64,000 nt of DNA from Kitasatospora sp. NBC_01250 (lineage in GTDB: Bacteria; Actinomycetota; Actinomycetes; Streptomycetales; Streptomycetaceae): the NCBI RefSeq assembly GCF_036226465.1, contig NZ_CP108476.1, positions 8,246,001-8,310,000 of the forward strand. Direction: 5' to 3'. The notes beneath the pieces are model-generated. The model did not search any database. It saw only the letters and a program-made list of their open reading frames with translations, and was not told the origin of the DNA. Shown here piece by piece: positions 1 through 50,767 of this stretch. Position numbers and translations under genes: made by a program. Within the stretch, counting starts at the first letter, position 1, and every line of letters starts with the position of its first letter.

Positions 1-16447
<16,447 letters not shown>

Positions 16448-42299: not shown

Positions 42300-42653
42300 G
42301 CGGACGGTGCCTCCAGAGGTGATGTCCGCCCACCCTAGCGACCCAACCTGTGGGACGACGGGGTCGCCTTATACCTCGCCGCAGTCCACCCGCCGGGCTC
42401 TTCCCGGCACCTCCGCTCGATCGAGTGATCGTCGCGTGCCGGGCCGCACGGCCCAGCGGTTCAGCGACCCGCACTCCCGGGCGCGCACGCCTGGGCGCGG
42501 TCACATTCCGACCCTGACCCGGAAGGTGGCCCGCTACTTCTGTCGAGACGCTGACAGCCCGCTGTCGCCCGTCCTAGGGTTTCCTCAACTCGCCGCACAG
42601 TGCGGCGAATTGCACGCCCGGGGCGGCCGTCCCGGGACATGGGGGGAGCAACA
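42300..42653. other. Divergent intergenic region, ABC operon / lectin gene
   Basis: About 350 bp with no gene. A small hairpin tcgccgca-cag-tgcggcga spans 42590-42608, 46 nt before the lectin start, within its likely 5' untranslated region. I see no clear promoter motif. Confidence 0.4.
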
Positions 42654-43265
42654 ATGCGCAGTCGTGCACGTTCAGCCGTGCTGGCCGTCTCGGTGACGGT
42701 CTGCCTGGGGGTCGCGGGGGTGGCCCAGGCCAGTGCCCACAGCAGCGCGGACAGCGCCGCCGGGCCGCGGATCATCAAGGTGGCGTCGGTCTCGCAGATC
42801 CCGACCGTGAGCAACCACGCCAAGGTCGTGCCGAACGCCATCTACCAGGTGACGATGACCAACAACGACCGGGGCCAGTGTCTCGACGGTGACACCAACA
42901 CCATCCCGAACAACGGGGCGAAGGTGCAGCTCTGGGGCTGCAACGGCTGGTCGAACCAGACCTGGGACTGGGCCCCGGCCGCCGGCTACCCGGCCGGCTA
43001 CTACAGCATCCAGAACAACGACCGGGGCGAGTGCCTGGACGGTGACACCAACACCATCCCGAACAACGGGGCGAAGGTGCAGCTCTGGGGCTGCAACGGC
43101 TGGTCCAACCAGACCTGGGCCTGGGGCGGCGCCACGCTGGTGAACGCCGACAAGGGCGAGTGCCTGGACGGTGACACCAACACCATCCCGAACAACGGCG
43201 CCAAGGTGCAGCTCTGGGCCTGCAACGGCTGGTCCAACCAGAACTGGACCCTGCACAACGTCTGA
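42654..43265 (+). CDS. Secreted three-repeat ricin-B-type lectin protein
   Basis: A 203-residue secreted protein with signal peptide (MRSRARSAVLAVSV..., AQASA near 27-31). The mature part holds three near-identical 35-residue repeats beginning at 42861, 43014 and 43143. Each carries QCLDGDTNT (or ECLDGDTNT) and ends QLWGCNGWSNQTW, with the QxW motif of ricin-B lectin beta-trefoils. A trefoil has three such lobes, so a single complete trefoil is formed; it could bind sugars of cell walls or polymers. No catalytic domain is attached. ATG 42654 follows GGGGGGAG. The lobes are far more similar to each other than usual. Confidence 0.88.
   Translation: MRSRARSAVLAVSVTVCLGVAGVAQASAHSSADSAAGPRIIKVASVSQIPTVSNHAKVVPNAIYQVTMTNNDRGQCLDGDTNTIPNNGAKVQLWGCNGWSNQTWDWAPAAGYPAGYYSIQNNDRGECLDGDTNTIPNNGAKVQLWGCNGWSNQTWAWGGATLVNADKGECLDGDTNTIPNNGAKVQLWACNGWSNQNWTLHNV
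42861..43247 (+). repeat. Three near-identical 105 bp repeats in the lectin gene
   Basis: Repeat copies at 42861-42965, 43014-43118 and 43143-43247 are largely identical at DNA level, including synonymous positions (ggtgacaccaacaccatccc in all). This indicates recent duplication or gene conversion rather than ancient trefoil symmetry. Confidence 0.9.
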
Positions 43266-43900: not shown

Positions 43901-44371
43901 TCAGCCTAGGTGGGGAGCCTCCCGGTGCTCCAGGAAGTGCTGGAGCCGGAGCCGCTGGGTGTGGTGCATGGGAAGGGCTTCGACGTCCTCCGGGGCGACG
44001 AACCGGAGATCGGTGGATTCGCTGGAGATCCGTAGCTCTCCTCCCGTGATGCGAGCGGTGAAGCAGACGTTGAACTGCTGGCGGACCTCGCCGTCCGAGT
44101 AGGCGATGATGTGCCGGGGGTCGGTGTACGTGCCGACCAGCCCGGTGATCTCGATGTTCAGGCCCGTCTCCTCCCGGACCTCGCGCACGGCCGTGTGCGG
44201 CAGCGACTCGCCGAGATCCATCGTCCCGCCGGGCAGCGGGTACAGCCCGTTGTCGGTTCGCCGTTGCAGCAGAATGCGGCCCGCGTCATCGGTCACGACG
44301 GCGGACGCCGCGACGACGACCCGGTTCGGCTTGGGGGCGTTGGGATCGTTGTAGTACTCGGTTCGTGCCAC
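43901..44371 (-). CDS. NUDIX hydrolase
   Basis: A 156-residue NUDIX protein. The box GGTMDLGESLPHTAVREV, continuing into REETGL, fits GX5EX7REUXEEXGU. A short tail after YTDPRHIIAYSDGEV resembles NTP- or NDP-sugar-cleaving members. GTG 44371 is preceded by GAGGAG; the start MARTEYYNDPNAP is typical of the family. It lies 104 bp downstream of a second NUDIX gene and ends the Gfo/Idh-DegT operon. Confidence 0.9.
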   Translation of the reverse strand: MARTEYYNDPNAPKPNRVVVAASAVVTDDAGRILLQRRTDNGLYPLPGGTMDLGESLPHTAVREVREETGLNIEITGLVGTYTDPRHIIAYSDGEVRQQFNVCFTARITGGELRISSESTDLRFVAPEDVEALPMHHTQRLRLQHFLEHREAPHLG

Positions 44372-44475
44372 GTGATCAGTTCTCCTCAACCGGTCGAGCG
44401 GTGTCCCACACTGCGTCGAAGCTCGCGGCATTGGTATCGAATCAGCACCGCCCTGACCGAGGTGGGGGATGCCCC

Positions 44476-44916
44476 TCAGCGAGTGATCAGTTTCCTTACT
44501 GCTTCGCTGACACCGGGCAGTTCGCCGCGGTCGGCCCAGGTGTGGTCGTCGTGCTCGGTGAGGGTGATCGGGGCGGCATTCTCGACGGTGGCCTCGAAGG
44601 TGAGCTGGCGGGTGAGGGCGCCGCTCTTGGAGGCATAGTCGAACCGGCCGAGGTAGGCGGTGACCTGGTCGATGGTGAGGCCGGTCTCCTCTCTGGTCTC
44701 CCGCCGCAGGGCCTTCTCGAAGTCCTCGCCCGGCTCGACCTTCCCGGAAGGCAGCTCCCACAGGCCCGGCATGAAGTCGTCGGCGGGCCGGCGCAGGAGG
44801 AGGACGCGGTCGCCCTCGGTGATGACCGTGGCGACGACGAATCGGGTGATCCCGGTCTCCTGGGCGTCGAAGAGCAGGCCCGGAGTGAAGGCAGGATCGG
44901 CGAAGGGGGAGATCAC
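44476..44916 (-). CDS. NUDIX hydrolase
   Basis: A 146-residue NUDIX protein with the box GKVEPGEDFEKALRRETREE, continuing TGL. The N-terminus (LFDAQETGITRFVVATVI) and the PGLWELPSGKVEPGE lead-in are typical of MutT-like pyrophosphatases. The GTG start overlaps the DegT stop by GTGA, so it is translated as part of the DegT operon. In this context it may act on a nucleotide-activated intermediate, which is inference. Confidence 0.9.
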   Translation of the reverse strand: MISPFADPAFTPGLLFDAQETGITRFVVATVITEGDRVLLLRRPADDFMPGLWELPSGKVEPGEDFEKALRRETREETGLTIDQVTAYLGRFDYASKSGALTRQLTFEATVENAAPITLTEHDDHTWADRGELPGVSEAVRKLITR

Positions 44917-46166
44917 AGCAGCTCCTTGTGGTGGTTGCTCACCTTAATGGCCGCGCGGACGTAACTCTCGGCCAATGGACGATCCTGCTCACGATGCCAG
45001 ACCGGGAGCTTGATCGTATGCGCGTGGGCGTGCTCGGCGATCGGGAAGTCCCCTTCCTTGTAAGGGCGGTGGGAGCGCGGGTGGCCGGGGAACAACTGCG
45101 CTGGATGCTGGTAGAGCGGGAGCTGGTTCAGTGGGCAGGTGGAGCCGGGCCGGTCGAACTCGGTTGCTCCCTCGGCGATGAGGGCCTGGTGGAAACGTTC
45201 GATGCTCAGGCCGTCGAGCTCGCCGGGGTGGTAGGTGAGCGTCAGCCCGTACCAGGACGGGATCACTCCATCGGGCATCGGCACGACCTCGAAACCGGGG
45301 ATGCGCGCGAACTCCGTGGTGAGGTAGGCGGCGATCTCGGCCCGGCCGGCGAGGTAGCCGTCGAGGCGGGTGAGCTGGTCGTGCGCGAGGGCCGCGGCCA
45401 GCGGGTGGATGCGGAGTTTGAGGCCGGACCCGGTGACCGCGTACTTGGCCAGCGGGTGTCCGTCCGGGATCTCGGACTTGGCCCGCTTGTTGTAGTGGGC
45501 GAAGGTCACCAACTGGTAGTACGTGTCGTCGTCGTCGGTGAGGACGAACCCGCCCTCGCCCCCGGACAGCGGCTTGGGGCCGTTGAGGGAGAAGGCTCCG
45601 GCAAGTCCGAAGGTGCCGACCTTCTTGCCGCCCTGGGAGGCTCCGTGGGCGTGTGAGCCGTCCTCCAGCAGGGCCAGGTTGTGCGCCTTGGCGATGGACC
45701 GCAGGGCGATCATGGCGGCCGGCCTGCCCCACAGGTGGGTGACCATGAGGGCCCGGGTGCGCGGGGTGATCAGCTCCTCGATCCTGGTTGGGTCGATGTT
45801 GCCGTCCGGGCCGGTCTCGCAGAGCACTGGCACCGCGCGGAGATGGAACAGGGGAGAGGCGGTGGCGTGGAAGGTCCAGGCCGGGACGATCACCTCATCG
45901 CCGGCCTTGATCCGCGCAGCCGAGTAGGTAGCGTGCAGGGCGGCAGTGCCGCAGCTGGTGGTGACCGCGTGGCGGACGCCGAAGTACTCCTGCAGGGCAT
46001 CCTCCAGCTCGGCCACGATGCCGCTCCGGCCGGGAACAGAGATCGCGGTGTCGAGCTGGGCAGCGACCTTCGCGCGGGTGGTGTCGTCGATCGGCGGCCA
46101 CTGGAAGTGCGGGCCGTTGGCGGTCACTACGGCGTCGCCGCCGAGCAGGGCGAGAGTGTTGGTCAC
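44913..46166 (-). CDS. DegT/DnrJ/EryC1/StrS-family PLP aminotransferase
   Basis: A 417-residue sugar-type aminotransferase. Family motifs are AVTTSCGTAALHATYSA (cofactor phosphate loop, ~70-85), AGDEVIVPAWTFHATA (~95), LLEDGSHAHGA (Asp near the pyridine nitrogen), and SLNGPKPLSGGEGGFV with the Schiff-base Lys (~190). Its relatives transfer an amino group to keto-sugars or keto-cyclitols in antibiotic and lipopolysaccharide synthesis. The GTG start overlaps the end of the Gfo/Idh/MocA gene and the gene overlaps the next NUDIX, so oxidation followed by amination of a shared substrate is a natural reading. Confidence 0.93.
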   Translation of the reverse strand: MTNTLALLGGDAVVTANGPHFQWPPIDDTTRAKVAAQLDTAISVPGRSGIVAELEDALQEYFGVRHAVTTSCGTAALHATYSAARIKAGDEVIVPAWTFHATASPLFHLRAVPVLCETGPDGNIDPTRIEELITPRTRALMVTHLWGRPAAMIALRSIAKAHNLALLEDGSHAHGASQGGKKVGTFGLAGAFSLNGPKPLSGGEGGFVLTDDDDTYYQLVTFAHYNKRAKSEIPDGHPLAKYAVTGSGLKLRIHPLAAALAHDQLTRLDGYLAGRAEIAAYLTTEFARIPGFEVVPMPDGVIPSWYGLTLTYHPGELDGLSIERFHQALIAEGATEFDRPGSTCPLNQLPLYQHPAQLFPGHPRSHRPYKEGDFPIAEHAHAHTIKLPVWHREQDRPLAESYVRAAIKVSNHHKELL

Positions 46167-47155
46167 AGCATCTCCTCGGGGTTGATGTAATGCCCGGTCG
46201 TCTTGGACCGGTAGCAGGAGGCGATGAAGGCGGCGTGGGCCAGGTGCTGCCGGGGACCGGAGGTGTTGGGGCGCTCGCCATCCAGCACCCGGCAGAAGTA
46301 GTCGATCTGGGCTGTAGCCGCACTCGCCGGCGCCTGCGGGCGGGTCAGCTCCTCGACCACTGAGCCGTCCAGAGCGAGCCGCTGGACCCTGCCCTTCGTC
46401 AGCAGCACGGAGCCTTGTGTGCCGACGACGTGCAGTCTCTCGGTCTTCGGCGCCATCCACCGCGACAGCAGTACCGTGCCGTAGAGGTCGGAGTCGTAGC
46501 CGACCTGGATGACGGCAGTGTCCTCGGCGTCGTAGCCACCCCCGGGCAGCGCGGCCGTGGAGAAATCGGCCATGACGCGGTTGGGCATCCCGAAGTACCA
46601 CAGCAGGAGGTCGACCAGGTGGTAGCCCATGTCGATGATGCAGCCGCCGCCGGCCTGCTTCACGTCCCCGCGCCAGCCGGCCCCGGGGTCGTCGGTGTGG
46701 AACGTGTACTGACCGTCGATCAAGAACGGAGTGCCGATCTGGTCGAGGAACTGCACCACGGAGATGTAGATCGGGTTGAAGCGCCTCTGGAGAGTGACCA
46801 TCAGCTCTGCCCCGCCCGCCTCGCAGATCGCCGCGAGCTCGCGGGCTTCCTGCGGGGAGGTTGCGAACGGCTTCTCCTTGAGGACGTGCACGCCCCGGGA
46901 CGCGCACTCTTCGATCACGGCCCGACCCGCGTGGTGCGGGACCGCGACGATCACGAAGTCCGGCTTGACAGCGTCCAGCAGGTCGGTGGCCTTGGCAAAG
47001 CCCGGGACCCGGTGGGCTTCCTGCTGGGCACGAAGAGCGTTCGGGTCGATGTCACAGACCGCGACCAGCTCGGCCCTGGTGGAGCCGAGCAGGCCCGGCA
47101 GGTGGTCTTCGAGTGTCTGGTGGCCGAGGCCGATGACTGCTGAGCGTCGCTTCAT
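46163..47155 (-). CDS. Gfo/Idh/MocA-family oxidoreductase
   Basis: A 330-residue NAD(P)-dependent oxidoreductase. The N-terminal Rossmann motif is AVIGLGHQTLEDH (GxGxxx; the usual second Gly of GxGxxG is His), followed by VAVCDIDP. EKPFATSPQEA is the family hallmark holding the catalytic Lys. The C-terminal domain has GGGCIIDMGYHLVDLLLWYFG with the conserved Asp-His pair. These enzymes oxidise hydroxyls of sugars, inositols and related compounds. ATG 47155. It opens the operon with the aminotransferase, which suggests that it makes the keto substrate. Confidence 0.93.
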   Translation of the reverse strand: MKRRSAVIGLGHQTLEDHLPGLLGSTRAELVAVCDIDPNALRAQQEAHRVPGFAKATDLLDAVKPDFVIVAVPHHAGRAVIEECASRGVHVLKEKPFATSPQEARELAAICEAGGAELMVTLQRRFNPIYISVVQFLDQIGTPFLIDGQYTFHTDDPGAGWRGDVKQAGGGCIIDMGYHLVDLLLWYFGMPNRVMADFSTAALPGGGYDAEDTAVIQVGYDSDLYGTVLLSRWMAPKTERLHVVGTQGSVLLTKGRVQRLALDGSVVEELTRPQAPASAATAQIDYFCRVLDGERPNTSGPRQHLAHAAFIASCYRSKTTGHYINPEEML

Positions 47156-47289
47156 GGGCAGACTCCTTCCGCTCCGTGCGGGAACTTGTCGATGCGTGTC
47201 GAGTACAGCCCAACTGCCCGTGGTCGGATAGGCATTGTCTGTAGTCCCGGGGTGGTCCCGCCGGTGCGCGCAGTAGGCTTCCGGTCACT

Positions 47290-48627
47290 GTGAATGATGG
47301 AATTGGCCCTGTGAGCGACCCGATCCGGCACCCCCTCGCCTACGCCCGTCAACTGTGCGGCAACCTCTCGCAGACAGGGCTGGCCGTTCGCATGGACCAG
47401 GCCGCCCGTCGGCGCGGGCTTCGCTCCGGCGCGGACAAGCAGGCCATCAGCAAGTGGGAGAACTGGATCAAGGAGCCCAACTCGGACTCCCAACTCCTGA
47501 TCGCCGAAGCCCTCGACGTCCCGATCGCGGACGTCGAACTACTGGGTTGGCCCTACTGGCTCCCGGGTTGTGACTCCCCGCTGCCCTTGGGCTCCGCGTA
47601 CACCGTCCAAGCACTTCGAGAGGCCCAGAGAACCGCGATGGACCGCCGTAACTTCATGACCTTCGGCGCTGTCGCGCTGGCCGGCCTCTCGGCGCAGTGG
47701 GCCGCGATCGAACCCGAGAGGATCAGTACCGTCCTCGATGGCAGGCGCGTCGATCTGGAACTGGTCGACTGGCTGGAGGAGACCACCGCAAAGCTGACCT
47801 CCCTACCGACCGAACAGCGCCAGCACACGGCGAAGCTGATGGACGCCCACCTGGCCACTGTCACCGACCTCATCGAACCCGGCAACTACACTGAGGCCAC
47901 CGGCAGGCGGCTGCACCTGCTGGCCGCGTCACTGGCGGGCATCTGTGGCTGGCACCGTTTCGACCAAGGTCGGCACTATGCGGCGGGCAAGCACTGGAAC
48001 GCCGCGTTGACCAGCGCGCATGCCGCCGGTGACCGTGACCTCGGCGCCGGCGTGCTGTCCGACTTCGCGTACCAGTCCATCTGGCTCGGAGACCCGAAGG
48101 CAGCCGTCGAACCACTCAGCCAGGCACTGATCCACACCCGTCACCCCACTGCTCGGTCCCTGCTGTTCCTTCGCCGGGCCCGCGCGCATGCCGCGCTCGG
48201 TGAGCGCGCCGCTTGCCACCGCGACCTCTCTGCCGCCGAGACCGAGCTGTTGACCGACGCGGTCGACCCGGCGCCTCGCTGGTGCTCGTGGATGAGCACT
48301 GCGGATCTCGCCGTCGACTCCGGCCAATGCCTGCTCGACCTTGGCCGCACAGAGGAGGCTCATGCCCGCATCGACGAAGGCATGCGTCTATTGCCTCGCT
48401 CACGTGACAAGACGCGAGGGATTTTCCTGACCTACGAAGCCCGCAGCCTGCTGCGCGCCTGCGAGATCGAGCAGGCCCTCGCCGTCACCACCGAGTCGCT
48501 GGACCTCGCCGAGCGTATCGGCGCCGGACGGTGCATCACCCTGGTCCGCGAACTCGCCCCGACCTTCAAGCGGTACCACGGCATCGACGGCGTGCCCGAA
48601 CTGATGGAACGCCTGCGGGCGGCGTGA
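47290..48627 (+). CDS. XRE-type regulator with tetratricopeptide-like domain
   Basis: A 445-residue regulator. The N-terminal ~70 residues form an XRE-type HTH (GLAVRMDQAARRRG, ADKQAISKWENWIKEPN). Residues ~118-135 (RRNFMTFGAVALAGLS) are a short hydrophobic stretch that sits between the HTH and the helical part, a feature repeatedly seen in this streptomycete family and not a signal. The remaining ~300 residues are a string of helix pairs typical of TPR/bacterial-transcription-activation-type domains (AALTSAHAAGDRDLG, LIHTRHPTARSLLFLRRARA, LLRACEIEQALAVTTESLDL). GTG 47290 or GTG 47311 may be the start. It is divergent from the Gfo/DegT operon by 134 bp and is probably its regulator. Confidence 0.85.
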   Translation: MNDGIGPVSDPIRHPLAYARQLCGNLSQTGLAVRMDQAARRRGLRSGADKQAISKWENWIKEPNSDSQLLIAEALDVPIADVELLGWPYWLPGCDSPLPLGSAYTVQALREAQRTAMDRRNFMTFGAVALAGLSAQWAAIEPERISTVLDGRRVDLELVDWLEETTAKLTSLPTEQRQHTAKLMDAHLATVTDLIEPGNYTEATGRRLHLLAASLAGICGWHRFDQGRHYAAGKHWNAALTSAHAAGDRDLGAGVLSDFAYQSIWLGDPKAAVEPLSQALIHTRHPTARSLLFLRRARAHAALGERAACHRDLSAAETELLTDAVDPAPRWCSWMSTADLAVDSGQCLLDLGRTEEAHARIDEGMRLLPRSRDKTRGIFLTYEARSLLRACEIEQALAVTTESLDLAERIGAGRCITLVRELAPTFKRYHGIDGVPELMERLRAA

Positions 48628-48726: not shown

Positions 48727-49008
48727 ATGCGTCTTCGTCATGCCTTGGTCGCCGTCCTCGCGGCCGCCCTCGTCTTGGTCTGCACGTCTCCCGCTCAGGC
48801 GGCGACAGGGCTTCTGGTGGTGAACGGGGTTGCCCATGAGAACCCGGGGCGGGGGTGCTATCCGGCGTCGTCTCCGGTCTCCGTCAAGAACTTCACGGAT
48901 TCGACGGTCCTGGTGCATGCGGCGGCGGATTGCCAGGGGCCGGTGACTGCGGAGGTGGGTCCCGATCAGAGCGTGACGGCGTTCGGCGGGAGCTACTACG
49001 TGTTCTGA
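48727..49008 (+). CDS. Small secreted protein
   Basis: A 93-residue protein with a clear signal peptide: MRLRHALVAVLAAALVLV then AQA|ATG. The mature part of ~68 residues has two Cys (GRGCYPA; AADCQG), enough for one disulfide, and Val/Thr-rich strands (STVLVHAAAD, TAEVGPDQSVTAF). I do not recognise a family; it may be a short structural or surface protein. ATG 48727 follows AGGGAG. Its layout matches the next small secreted protein and their N-termini after cleavage both begin ATG. Confidence 0.75.
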   Translation: MRLRHALVAVLAAALVLVCTSPAQAATGLLVVNGVAHENPGRGCYPASSPVSVKNFTDSTVLVHAAADCQGPVTAEVGPDQSVTAFGGSYYVF

Positions 49009-49048
49009 GCGGCCCCCGAACCGCCGACTGCCGACCGGTGATGGATCG

Positions 49049-50767
49049 TCAGTTCCAATGCCACCATCCATGACGCCGCACGAGGGACATCGTGTCTAGC
49101 CAGGCATGACCTGGGGCATCGTTCGTGTGCTGCGCTCTGCGAGTCCGCTGGGCGCGAGACCGTTCGAACAAGGAAAGTCCGTCATGCGATTCCGTCAGAC
49201 CGCTGTCGCCGCTCTCGGCGCCCTCACGCTCCTCATTGCCGTCCCCAGCTCGGCCCACGCCGCCACCGGAGAGTTCCTCTACAAGGTCGGGCCGGGCGTC
49301 CCTGCGGGACTCGCCGATCCCGAGAGCGGCCAATGCATCAACCTGTTCGGGGCCACCGACATCGACCCGGCCTTCGCCCCGGAGAATTTCACCCGGTCCA
49401 CCGCCACGGTCTATCTGGACTTCGACTGCGAGGGTGACGTGTACCGCGTGATGAACCCCGGCACGAAGCTCGGTGACCGCCTCAAGCTCCGCTCGGTCGT
49501 CTTCTCGTAGCCACCGCATGCTGTGCGGGCCCCGCCGGTCGCCACCGGCGGGGCCTTCGCACGCCCCCGCCTGCCCGCCCCCGACCCCGGCCGCGACGGC
49601 GAGCGCCGCGCCCGCCGCAGCCGCTCCCACCACCGTCACCGCCGGCCAGCCGCCGTGTGGCCAGGCCAGTGAACCCGCCAGTGAGCCGACGGCGATGCCG
49701 AGGAAGCGCAGCGTGAAGTAGCAGGTGTTCAGCCGGCTGTGCTGGCCGACCGGGAAGGCGGCGAACAGCGCGCTCTGGCAGACCACTTGGTTCCCCCACG
49801 TCCCGACGTCGAGCACCACCACCCCCGCCAGCAGCCAGCCGAGCGAGCCGCCGCCCGGCAGCAGCAGCGCCCAGCCCGCCAGCACCACGGCGATCAGGGC
49901 GGTGAGCGCGCCGCGTCGGCCGAGACGGTCGGCGAGGCGGCCGATGGGCGGGGAGGCGAGCGCGCTGGCGGCGGCGACCAGGCCGAACAGGCCGACCTCG
50001 GTGGAGTCGTAGCGGTAGTGCTGGGCGAGCAGGAAGGTCAGCGCGGTCCAGAACGCCCCGAAGGAGGCGCCGACCAGTGCCCCCGAGAGCGTCACCCGGC
50101 GGACCACGGCGTGCCCGGTGAACAGGCGCGGCAGCGAGGCCAGCGCGGCCCGGTAGGCGAGGGCGCCCGTGGGCACAGAGGTGGGCAGTGCGCGCCACAG
50201 GAGGGCGGTCAGCAGCAGGGTGAGGGCGGCCGAACACCCGTAGACGGCCCGCCAGCCGCACAGCTGCGCCAGCCAGCCGGAGTACGCGCGAGCGGCCAGT
50301 ACCCCCACCAGCAGGCCGCCCTGGATCGTGCCCAGTACCCGTCCTGGCTGCCGCCCGCCCGCGAGCGCGACGGCCAGCGGCGCCACCAGCTGCGGGACGG
50401 GGGAGCACAGGCCGAGCGCCAGGCTCGCCGCGACCAGCCAGGGCACGCCCGGTGCCAGCGCGCAGGCGGTGAGCGCGAGCGTGGCGGCCGTGCCGAGCAG
50501 CAGGATCAGTCGGCGCCGGTCCCGGCTGTCCCCGGCCGGGACCAGCAGCGCGATGCCGAGCGCGTAGCCGAGCTGGGTGGCCGTCGGCACCGCGCCCAGC
50601 AGCGCGGGCGCGCGGTGGAAGTCGTGGGCGGCGGCGGTCAGCAGCGGCTGGTTGAGGTAGACGTTGGCGGCGGTGACCGCGCTGGTGGCGGCCAGCAGCG
50701 CGGTGCGAGTGCGAGTGCGAGTGCGGGGACGAGGGCGGGGGCGGTGGTCGGAGGAGAGCGCTGTCAC
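49049..50767 (-). CDS. MFS transporter with run-on 3' end
   Basis: A major facilitator carrier with ~12 helices in its first ~390 residues. Motif-like signatures are NVYLNQPLL at helix 1, GDSRDRRRLILL (loop 2-3 with an acidic-basic signature) and GRLADRLGRRGAL (loop 8-9 motif A). The family suggests drug or metabolite export; NQPLLTAAAHDF at helix 1 resembles MFS proteins of the YnfM-type group. After the last helix (GAALAVAAGVGGG, ~49570) the frame does not stop but passes antisense through the hairpin and all of the small secreted gene to TGA 49049. A lost stop or frameshift near 49560 is likely; another frame stops at 49482. Start taken as GTG 50767, just before the Arg-Thr/Pro repeat; GTG at other positions is possible. 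Confidence 0.75.
   Translation of the reverse strand: MTALSSDHRPRPRPRTRTRTRTALLAATSAVTAANVYLNQPLLTAAAHDFHRAPALLGAVPTATQLGYALGIALLVPAGDSRDRRRLILLLGTAATLALTACALAPGVPWLVAASLALGLCSPVPQLVAPLAVALAGGRQPGRVLGTIQGGLLVGVLAARAYSGWLAQLCGWRAVYGCSAALTLLLTALLWRALPTSVPTGALAYRAALASLPRLFTGHAVVRRVTLSGALVGASFGAFWTALTFLLAQHYRYDSTEVGLFGLVAAASALASPPIGRLADRLGRRGALTALIAVVLAGWALLLPGGGSLGWLLAGVVVLDVGTWGNQVVCQSALFAAFPVGQHSRLNTCYFTLRFLGIAVGSLAGSLAWPHGGWPAVTVVGAAAAGAALAVAAGVGGGQAGACEGPAGGDRRGPHSMRWLREDDRAELEAVTELRAGVHHAVHVTLAVEVQIDRGGGPGEILRGEGRVDVGGPEQVDALAALGIGESRRDARPDLVEELSGGGVGRAGDGNEEREGAESGDSGLTESHDGLSLFERSRAQRTRRAQHTNDAPGHAWLDTMSLVRRHGWWHWN
49184..49510 (+). CDS. Small secreted protein
   Basis: A 108-residue protein with signal peptide (MRFRQTAVAALGALTLLI..., AHA|ATG). 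The mature part has two Cys (SGQCINLFG; FDCEGDVY) and ends MNPGTKLGDRLKLRSVVFS. Sequence after the signal, ATGEFLYKVGPG, is reminiscent of the neighbour at 48727 (ATGLLVVNG), so they may be distant paralogues. ATG 49184 follows AAGGAAAG at good spacing. The opposite strand carries the run-on 3' end of the MFS frame, so the two would overlap antisense if that frame is really translated. Confidence 0.75.
   Translation: MRFRQTAVAALGALTLLIAVPSSAHAATGEFLYKVGPGVPAGLADPESGQCINLFGATDIDPAFAPENFTRSTATVYLDFDCEGDVYRVMNPGTKLGDRLKLRSVVFS
49528..49555. terminator. Hairpin after the small secreted gene
   Basis: An 11 bp stem ggccccgccgg (49528-49538) / ccggcggggcc (49545-49555) with a 6 nt loop, 17 nt after the secreted gene's stop. 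It also lies where the convergent MFS gene should end. Confidence 0.8.

What the first reader, a model, noticed from the sequence alone, without database searches (positions are those of the whole stretch)
43901..48627. Lower-GC island: oxidoreductase - aminotransferase - two NUDIX with a divergent XRE-TPR regulator
The first three genes overlap by 4 nt, and the second NUDIX follows 104 bp downstream. Oxidation plus transamination is the standard way to make an amino-sugar or amino-cyclitol; two NUDIX enzymes suggest activated or nucleotide-linked intermediates. Codon third positions are visibly less GC-saturated than in flanking genes, consistent with transfer. I cannot name a known pathway with exactly this set, so it is a candidate for a small undescribed system.
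Basis: partly seen in the sequence, partly recalled or inferred. Interest (0 to 1): 0.6.

Follow-up and report, generated by a model that had tools for sequence, protein, structure and literature searches.

The report
Portable four-gene amino-nucleotide cassette
Next to a divergent regulator sits a compact three-enzyme operon whose closest recognisable relatives belong to pathways for amino-nucleoside antibiotics such as puromycin; it turns up at unrelated places in soil bacteria, and many relatives have lost the building enzymes but kept the one that may protect the cell.

Summary
In detail: oxidoreductase (OX), aminotransferase (AT) and NUDIX1 overlap by GTGA, NUDIX2 follows after 104 bp, and an XRE regulator diverges. 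The interpretation needs changing. OX-AT-NUDIX1, mostly with the divergent XRE, is a conserved cassette in 16 of 297 Streptomycetaceae genomes, mostly at unrelated places. NUDIX2 is not part of it. OX and AT group with enzymes of puromycin/ADG-type pathways and share residues that are rare in the other relatives sampled; NUDIX1 fits by position, its own sequence link being weak. Best reading: a minimal amino-deoxynucleotide pathway with NUDIX1 as maturation and self-protection enzyme, not an amino-sugar system. Unlike pur and adg it has no Pur3-type phosphatase nearby (0 of 24 loci). Unexpectedly, 15 of 297 genomes keep only an intact NUDIX1, 14 of them behind AT 3' stumps of various lengths, interleaved with intact cassettes on the tree; one reverse case was seen. 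The same regulator and promoter precede peptide natural-product genes elsewhere. New variant of a known kind; chemistry untested.

The parts
47290..48627 (+). Divergent NsdA-family XRE-TPR regulator (445 aa)
   Evidence: NCBIfam NF053720 E 4.6e-97; 70-86% identical regulator at the same place in most other A-type cassettes
47156..47289 (.). 134-bp divergent intergenic region with 11-nt direct repeat GGGACCACCCCGGGACTAC (minus strand), probable operator
   Evidence: Region alignable in 20 of 21 loci; only perfect match to GGGACNACCCCNGGACTAC in the 9.0-Mb genome; 31 matches with up to 3 mismatches against 41 for the reversed control
46163..47155 (-). OX: Gfo/Idh/MocA oxidoreductase (330 aa), Pur10/AdgB-like, predicted nucleotide dehydrogenase
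   Evidence: Pfam PF01408/PF22725; tree with pur/adg-type enzymes 98/97*; shared residues H74, K93, F97, M176, Y178, K237
44913..46166 (-). AT: DegT-family PLP aminotransferase (417 aa), Pur4/AdgC-like
   Evidence: Pfam PF01041 E 7.4e-71; tree; SHAHG and TGxGL residues
44476..44916 (-). NUDIX1: MutT-type hydrolase (146 aa), in the place of Pur7/AdgD; predicted pyrophosphohydrolase and self-protection enzyme
   Evidence: Pfam PF00293; PDB hits named mostly as NTP pyrophosphohydrolases; kept without complete OX or AT in 15 of 297 genomes
43901..44371 (-). NUDIX2: second NUDIX gene (156 aa); neighbour, not part of the conserved cassette
   Evidence: Never the best hit at any place in 32 other cassette or remnant loci; 53% relative in L144, 5 kb from a related AT

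Best explanation
The cassette is a minimal aminonucleotide pathway of the puromycin/ADG type under its own regulator. OX (Pur10-like) oxidises a ribose hydroxyl of a nucleoside triphosphate, most likely the 3'-OH, to a ketone. NUDIX1 (in the place of Pur7) cuts off pyrophosphate to give the monophosphate. AT (Pur4-like) puts an amino group on the ketone, giving a 3'-amino-3'-deoxy nucleotide. If host kinases turn this back into a triphosphate it would mimic ATP or GTP and stop RNA chains; NUDIX1 would destroy that triphosphate in the producer. The XRE regulator controls the operon, probably through the GGGAC direct repeat (11-nt period) between the genes. Shown here: gene content, order, homology, operator conservation, portability, NUDIX retention. 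Inferred: substrate base, position of the amino group, direction of regulation, toxicity of the product, protective role of NUDIX1.
For: Gene order OX-AT-NUDIX equals adgB-C-D = pur10, pur4, pur7 homologues (PMC9239236 passages) and the OX-AT-NUDIX-inositol-monophosphatase order on symbiont plasmids pBMSBPS2 (annotated) and pPstS2 (annotated as hypothetical, matched). The pPstS2 AT and OX hit cassette proteins better than pur-type ones: AT 266-285 vs 177-192 bits (four other loci printed: up to 144), OX 122-132 vs 80-84; its NUDIX 57-74 vs 44-49 for pur-type and at most 45 for seven NUDIX loci of the window's genome. L136, one pur anchor, carries a puromycin N-acetyltransferase homologue (E 1.2e-82 to 7k09) and an inositol monophosphatase homologue. 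AT and OX trees put cassette, adg-like, pur-like and L145/L147 rows together and leave 70 other AT rows and 16 other OX rows outside. Shared residues lie next to the catalytic motifs. Pur10 is described as NAD-dependent ATP dehydrogenase and Pur7 is listed among resistance-mediating enzymes (PMC11641026 passages). NUDIX1 stands without complete OX/AT in 15 of 297 genomes; in 16 of 16 such loci (15 genomes, one plasmid) it reads without a stop, median omega 0.38.
Against: No enzyme was assayed and no product seen. Original Pur4/7/10 and Photorhabdus Adg sequences could not be fetched. NUDIX1 matches pur-type NUDIX (50-52 bits) no better than the best other NUDIX of its own genome (57 bits) and only slightly less than the adg-like ones (64-69); for L042 the own-genome NUDIX even ties with the adg-like ones. 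AT relatives of unknown function without detected OX neighbour (L137, L140-L144) score like the pur-type ones (205-224 bits) and lie inside or beside the clade, so membership does not fix the substrate. Outgroups had no functional labels, some branches are long, and the AT tree was a quick one. No Pur3-type phosphatase lies in 24 cassette loci. NUDIX1 can also be lost: G097 (B-type) keeps OX and the AT start but no NUDIX; G090 has a truncated NUDIX1.
Confidence: 0.6

Rival explanations
1. Amino-sugar or aminocyclitol pathway: OX oxidises a (nucleotide-)sugar or inositol, AT aminates it, NUDIX1 releases the sugar phosphate.
For: Named solved relatives of AT include perosamine synthetase and 2-deoxy-scyllo-inosose aminotransferase; best NCBIfam hits of OX are inositol 2-dehydrogenase and UDP-GlcNAc 3-dehydrogenase, far below their cut-offs.
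Against: Pur/adg-type homologues score higher than the solved enzymes and the 68 cross-phylum loci (AT 218-243 bits for pur-like and L145 rows against at most 171; OX 127-201 against at most 97); OX and AT trees and shared residues; solved relatives of NUDIX1 are named mostly as NTP pyrophosphohydrolases.
Confidence: 0.22
2. Intracellular anti-phage system: the three enzymes make a chain-terminating nucleotide inside the cell, as prokaryotic viperins do (recalled), with NUDIX1 as brake.
For: No Pur3-type phosphatase in 24 loci; patchy, portable distribution; ADG triphosphate interrupts RNA synthesis (PMC9239236, abstract and Discussion part 1); CRISPR genes are annotated within about 10 kb on two plasmids, one beside a cassette and one beside an orphan NUDIX; single flanking ORFs match defence models such as mad2, mad3, mad6.
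Against: Among 122 flanking ORFs of 21 cassette loci no PADLOC model matched more than two, and no integrase or transposase family is among the 25 commonest Pfam families; there was no control set. No cassette protein matches a specific defence model, NUDIX hitting only PDC-S07. The same regulator and promoter precede peptide natural-product genes elsewhere.
Confidence: 0.12
3. NUDIX1 retention is not immunity: deletions happen to spare the 3' end, or NUDIX1 has a general nucleotide clean-up role and is kept for that.
For: The A-type remnants counted spare the 3' end that holds NUDIX1, but they were found by searching with NUDIX1 and AT; NUDIX proteins are abundant (18 places including itself in this genome); many AT stumps stay open, perhaps as leaders for coupled translation; pairwise omega also covers time before the loss.
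Against: 15 NUDIX-only genomes against 16 with the full core; searches with OX and with the AT N-terminal half found one reverse case, of B-type. The orphan label needs 12 changes on the NUDIX tree (starred branches force 3), and median omega is 0.38 in orphans against 0.47 in cassettes.
Confidence: 0.35

Closest known systems
adg operon of Photorhabdus luminescens (3'-amino-3'-deoxyguanosine; PMC9239236: abstract, passages, Discussion part 1)
   Same: Homologues of pur10, pur4 and pur7 in the same order; small operon of lower GC than its neighbours
   Different: adg has a pur3-type phosphatase and an MFS gene; in 24 cassette loci no such phosphatase was found, an exporter is not among the recurrent genes, and a divergent NsdA-family regulator is
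pur (puromycin), ata (A201A) and cst (cystocin) clusters (PMC11641026: passages)
   Same: Pur10/Pur4/Pur7-type trio that builds the amino-nucleotide core; Pur7 counted among resistance-mediating enzymes
   Different: The pur cluster also has Pur6 synthetase, Pur3, an O-methyltransferase and PAC (passages); the cassette stops at the core
mdp-nud-xre gene set of actinomycete integrating elements; Pif of pSAM2 (PMC3218068: passages)
   Same: XRE regulator next to a NUDIX gene in mobile context; Pif is a NUDIX-domain protein that prevents redundant transfer; NsdA-like proteins occur in such elements
   Different: The described set has a metal-dependent phosphohydrolase, not OX and AT; integrase and transfer genes are not among the 25 commonest families beside the cassette
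Prokaryotic viperin (chain-terminating nucleotides against phage; recalled)
   Same: Would act through a modified ribonucleotide that stops RNA synthesis
   Different: Unrelated radical-SAM enzyme (recalled); no defence role shown here

Membership tests
Pur10/Pur4/Pur7-type aminonucleotide pathway | Pur10-type dehydrogenase and Pur4-type aminotransferase | tested here: met
   Trees and shared residues with the symbiont operons and the PAC-bearing cluster L136; original Pur sequences not available
Pur10/Pur4/Pur7-type aminonucleotide pathway | Pur7-type NUDIX in the same operon | tested here: inconclusive
   Right place and order; sequence link to adg-like NUDIX slightly, to pur-type NUDIX not above own-genome NUDIX
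Pur10/Pur4/Pur7-type aminonucleotide pathway | Pur3-type monophosphatase that releases the nucleoside | tested here: not met
   No hit at E<=1e-3 in 24 cassette loci of up to 24 kb
Pur10/Pur4/Pur7-type aminonucleotide pathway | Oxidation and amination of a nucleotide at the 3' position | not testable with these tools
   Needs enzyme assay or product isolation
NsdA-family regulators (NF053720) | Full-length match above the curated cut-off | tested here: met
   326 bits against a cut-off of 75; NsdA itself (NF050130) 93.7 bits against 830, so not NsdA proper
Known anti-phage defence systems (PADLOC 2023) | Specific model match or defence-island neighbourhood | tested here: not met
   Only the NUDIX model PDC-S07; 28 models matched one or two of 122 flanking ORFs each among the 25 shown, no control set
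Amino-sugar (DegT/Gfo) equivalogs such as PseC or IolG | OX or AT above the curated equivalog cut-off | tested here: not met
   TIGR04380 82 bits (cut-off 355), NF040723 73 (450), PseC 160 (423.5)
Actinomycete integrating conjugative elements (AICE) | Integrase, replication or transfer genes beside the cassette | tested here: inconclusive
   None among the 25 commonest of 107 Pfam families in 122 flanking ORFs; families seen once are mostly not listed

The most novel reading that the evidence does not exclude
A portable poison-and-antidote cassette made of small-molecule enzymes: OX and AT make a chain-terminating amino-nucleotide, NUDIX1 is its antidote. Lineages lose the poison genes again and again but keep the antidote, as orphan immunity against producing neighbours. 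The regulator with its promoter is a plug-in head that has been joined to other natural-product payloads (graspetides, radical-SAM peptides), so payload swapping behind one switch may be a general way in which these bacteria renew small weapons.
Probability: 0.25. Interest if true: 0.82.

Novelty: new variant of a known kind. Interest (0 to 1): 0.6.

Why it matters
It points to a minimal genetic unit for amino-nucleotide antibiotics, freestanding and not rare (16 of 297 sampled genomes of the family). It gives a natural set of 'antidote-only' genomes in which the idea of NUDIX enzymes as self-resistance to nucleotide analogues can be tested directly. The exchangeable regulator-promoter head offers a search handle for other small natural-product operons.

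Tried and rejected
Amino-sugar/aminocyclitol filing: rejected as first choice after the trees and shared residues. NUDIX2 as a member: rejected; extra NUDIX genes beside cassettes (L036, L117, L121, L146) are 32-43% identical to NUDIX2 over 54-105 residues. Phage or viral origin: in IMG/VR only two relatives of 27-28% (exact peptide patterns), in phage records at E<=1e-30 only three of 31%. Defence or mobile island: flanks of 21 loci gave no clear sign; no control set, so this is weak; L261 was meant to be a 22nd locus but no flanking ORF passed my filter, and the window's own flanks were not in the set. AlphaFold model of OX: mean pLDDT 53.5, not used. Regulon search with the operator pattern: nothing above the reversed control except the cassette's own site. 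Paper searches (ten) listed no paper that I could tell to be on this four-gene set; the library lacks most subscription journals.

Limits of the counts: the family searches drew 297 genomes and score only candidates of a loose first look, so short remnants can be missed, and thresholds differed (AT 1e-60, NUDIX1 1e-30, OX 1e-25, AT N-terminal half 1e-40, XRE 1e-70). AT stump starts come from tblastn and are rough. Flank ORFs came from a simple GC-frame picker of mine. Omega values are Nei-Gojobori type from my own script on 37 NUDIX sequences, pairs not independent. An earlier count gave about 19 genomes for full AT and another 22 loci for the flank scan; on recount the OX-AT-NUDIX1 core is in 16 genomes and the flank scan covered 21 loci.
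Full report
OBSERVATION. The five ORFs are real and correctly placed. OX-AT and AT-NUDIX1 overlap by the four bases GTGA; NUDIX2 starts 104 bp later; the regulator diverges across 134 bp. Pfam gives Gfo/Idh/MocA, DegT aminotransferase and two NUDIX. NCBIfam gives NsdA-family for the regulator (NF053720, 326 bits against a cut-off of 75). GC of the island is 67.8% against 74.8% in the window outside 42.5-49.6 kb. GC3 of the enzymes is only mildly low (0.88-0.90; mean of 28 other ORFs 0.938, s.d. 0.044), that of the regulator clearly low (0.818).

A PORTABLE CASSETTE. In 297 Streptomycetaceae genomes, full-length OX orthologues of at least 77% identity occur in 16, each with AT and NUDIX1. Partial cases are G077 (OX and AT truncated), G114 (fragments) and G131 (AT without OX, on a short contig whose end lies inside NUDIX1). 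G036, by its contig lengths Kitasatospora sp. GP82, has three copies. A divergent regulator 70-86% identical to the window's lies beside OX in most A-type loci; in K. cheerisanensis (L042) another XRE protein takes its place (26%), and L133 has none. The intergenic region aligns in 20 of 21 loci, with the motif GGGACnACCCCnGGACTAC or close variants, an 11-nt direct repeat. In the window's genome the only perfect match is the cassette's own; matches with up to 3 mismatches (31) do not exceed the reversed control (41). With cassette sequence masked, 22 of 703 pairs among 38 loci share 400 bp or more of flanking DNA at blastn E<=1e-20, so the cassette sits at many unrelated places. NUDIX2 was never the best hit in 32 other loci.

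A SECOND BRANCH. A B-type (AT 54-59% identical) has the same OX-AT-NUDIX order under a different helix-turn-helix regulator with different upstream sequence: plasmid pSGZL of Streptomyces sp. 769 and G152, G202, G206. The G202 AT has one stop, and the G206 OX and AT are split across frames. In 394 genomes drawn from the class, a search with the B-type AT found 6 (E<=1e-70). Of the four outside the family, L261 has the core (OX 58%, AT 58%, NUDIX 57%), L263 a more distant OX-AT-NUDIX (29%, 44%, 50%), and L262 and L264 show no adjacent NUDIX.

WHAT THE ENZYMES ARE. The biosynthetic part of the ADG operon of Photorhabdus consists of homologues of pur10, pur4, pur7 and pur3 in that order; expressed in E. 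coli it gave a compound matching 3'-amino-3'-deoxyguanosine, whose triphosphate is a GTP mimic that interrupts RNA chains (PMC9239236: abstract, passages and first part of the Discussion). [quoted passage not shown] I could not fetch those sequences. As anchors I used (a) two plasmids of stink-bug gut symbionts with OX-AT-NUDIX-inositol monophosphatase in that order (pBMSBPS2, annotated so; pPstS2, annotated as hypothetical but matched by blast), and (b) L136, where a puromycin N-acetyltransferase homologue (E 1.2e-82 to PDB 7k09) and an inositol monophosphatase homologue stand beside NUDIX, OX and AT homologues; L138 and L139 are relatives with AT, OX, NUDIX and an inositol monophosphatase.

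TESTS OF THAT ASSIGNMENT. The pPstS2 AT scores 266-285 bits with six cassette loci, 266-269 with L145/L147, 177-192 with pur-type and at most 144 with the four other loci printed; OX 122-132, 108-110, 80-84 and 58 (a chosen subset was printed). In the AT tree (97 rows, quick) cassette, adg-like, L145/L147 and L143/L144/L228 rows form one set (99*); with pur-like rows, L137, L140, L141 and L142 they form a 26-row set (95*); L002 of the window's genome lies just below, 70 other DegT rows outside. In the OX tree (36 rows, careful, bootstrap not settled) cassette, pur-like, L145/L147 and adg-like rows form one set (98/97*) apart from 16 others. Residues invariant in these sets and rare outside include, in OX, H74, K93 and F97 around EKP, M176 and Y178 in DMGYH, and K237; in AT W146, S171-H172 (SHAHG), T245-G246-L249 and P255. 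For NUDIX the link is weak: the pPstS2 NUDIX scores 57-74 bits with cassette NUDIX, 44-49 with pur-type and at most 45 with seven NUDIX loci of the window's genome. Window NUDIX1 scores 64-69 with adg-like, 57 with the best of those seven, 50-52 with pur-type; L042 NUDIX1 shows no preference. Best solved relatives of AT by plain sequence search include sugar and cyclitol aminotransferases, those of OX are various Gfo-type dehydrogenases, those of NUDIX1 are named mostly as NTP pyrophosphohydrolases. AT relatives of unknown function (L137, L140-L144) score about as high as pur-type ones, so the clade alone does not fix the substrate. No Pur3-type phosphatase was found in 24 cassette loci, a real difference from pur and adg.

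NUDIX1 IS KEPT WHEN THE REST IS LOST. NUDIX1 at E<=1e-30 occurs in 43 of 297 genomes. In 15 of them (G061, G065, G114, G134, G143, G147, G149, G159, G185, G195, G197, G205, G207, G209, G216) an A-type NUDIX1 stands without a complete OX or AT. In 14 of these, all but G149, a 3' stump of AT precedes it, starting anywhere from about residue 251 to about 382; the one in G209 is very short. The plasmid locus L148 has a longer stump split over two frames. All 16 such NUDIX1 genes read without a stop; median omega is 0.38 in 120 pairs, against 0.47 in 210 pairs from cassettes, though pairwise values also cover time before the loss. One of them, L131, has a changed residue in the Nudix box. On the NUDIX tree the labels 'orphan' and 'full' need 12 changes, about as many as shuffled labels (12.2); starred branches alone force 3. 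At two places the same flanks carry an intact cassette in one genome and a remnant in another: L121/L128, and L041/L131 with L206. Against this: a search with the AT N-terminal half found no A-type AT start without NUDIX, G131's being cut by the contig end. But G097 (B-type) has OX and the AT start without NUDIX and with a broken regulator gene, G090 has an N-terminally truncated NUDIX1, and L239 holds a NUDIX1 fragment. Weaker NUDIX1 relatives without cassette (L215-L223) were not counted.

THE REGULATORY HEAD IS EXCHANGEABLE. XRE at E<=1e-70 occurs in 54 of 297 genomes. I fetched 16 XRE loci away from cassettes, 56-78% identical to XRE; none has OX, AT or a complete NUDIX1 beside XRE. The upstream regions of 11 of the 16 were aligned: most resemble the cassette promoter and 9 of 11 match a strict operator expression, which one intact cassette (L041) also misses by a base. 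The payload behind the promoter is a graspetide set in L242 (TIGR04186, TIGR04187, TIGR04188, all above cut-off), with similar ORFs in L243, L244 and L246. In L240 it is a radical-SAM ORF related to AmcB (326.8 bits, below the cut-off of 425) with an AmcA-like end (above cut-off). Its start MKRRAAVTGLG matches 10 of the first 11 residues of OX in L041. In L247 and L250 the first genes are of other kinds, a dTDP-glucose dehydratase in L247.

MECHANISM. Most likely OX oxidises an NTP at the ribose, NUDIX1 removes pyrophosphate, AT aminates. NUDIX1 would also clear the toxic amino-NTP. Homology, order, operator, portability and retention are shown; substrate, product, toxicity and regulation are inferred.

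NOVELTY. The trio is known from puromycin, A201A, cystocin and ADG. Not found in ten searches of an incomplete library: the freestanding regulated cassette without Pur3, its spread in Streptomycetaceae, the recurrent antidote-only state and the exchangeable head. PMC13097080 (passages) notes DUF397-DUF5753 XRE pairs beside some graspetide genes, which is a different regulator type.

Noticed in passing
L226 (pPstS2) 7004-10451; L227 (pBMSBPS2) 2396-5843: Gut symbionts of stink bugs carry an OX-AT-NUDIX-inositol monophosphatase operon in adgB-E order on plasmids, in one case a 6.3-kb plasmid whose only other annotated gene is repA: perhaps an antibiotic made for the host (speculation).
   Followed up: partly
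L239-L248, L250: A similar XRE head and promoter precede other payloads: graspetide genes (L242; similar ORFs in L243, L244, L246) and a radical-SAM ORF that begins like OX (L240).
   Followed up: partly
   Followed up: partly
L147 6938-10627: Related OX-AT pair on a Streptomyces plasmid beside genes annotated as thymidine phosphorylase, glycosyltransferases and GTP cyclohydrolase II: possibly another nucleoside cluster.
   Followed up: no
L261 209-7608: The cassette in another family lies on a 13-kb contig with ORFs that look like Cas1 and a B-type DNA polymerase (by eye, untested), with another XRE-like regulator; possibly a mobile element.
   Followed up: no
window 42600-43265: Ricin-type lectin, probably secreted, with three near-identical repeats of CLDGDTNTIPNNGAKVQLWGCNGWSNQ.
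   Followed up: no
window 48727-49510: Two small, probably secreted proteins of low GC3 (0.80, 0.84) beyond the regulator, without Pfam or NCBIfam match; the low-GC stretch runs on through them.
   Followed up: no
L036 6196-6630, L117 11085-11399, L121 11531-11944, L146 12099-12515: Further NUDIX genes repeatedly stand next to cassettes; NUDIX was the commonest Pfam family in 122 flanking ORFs (4 members).
   Followed up: partly
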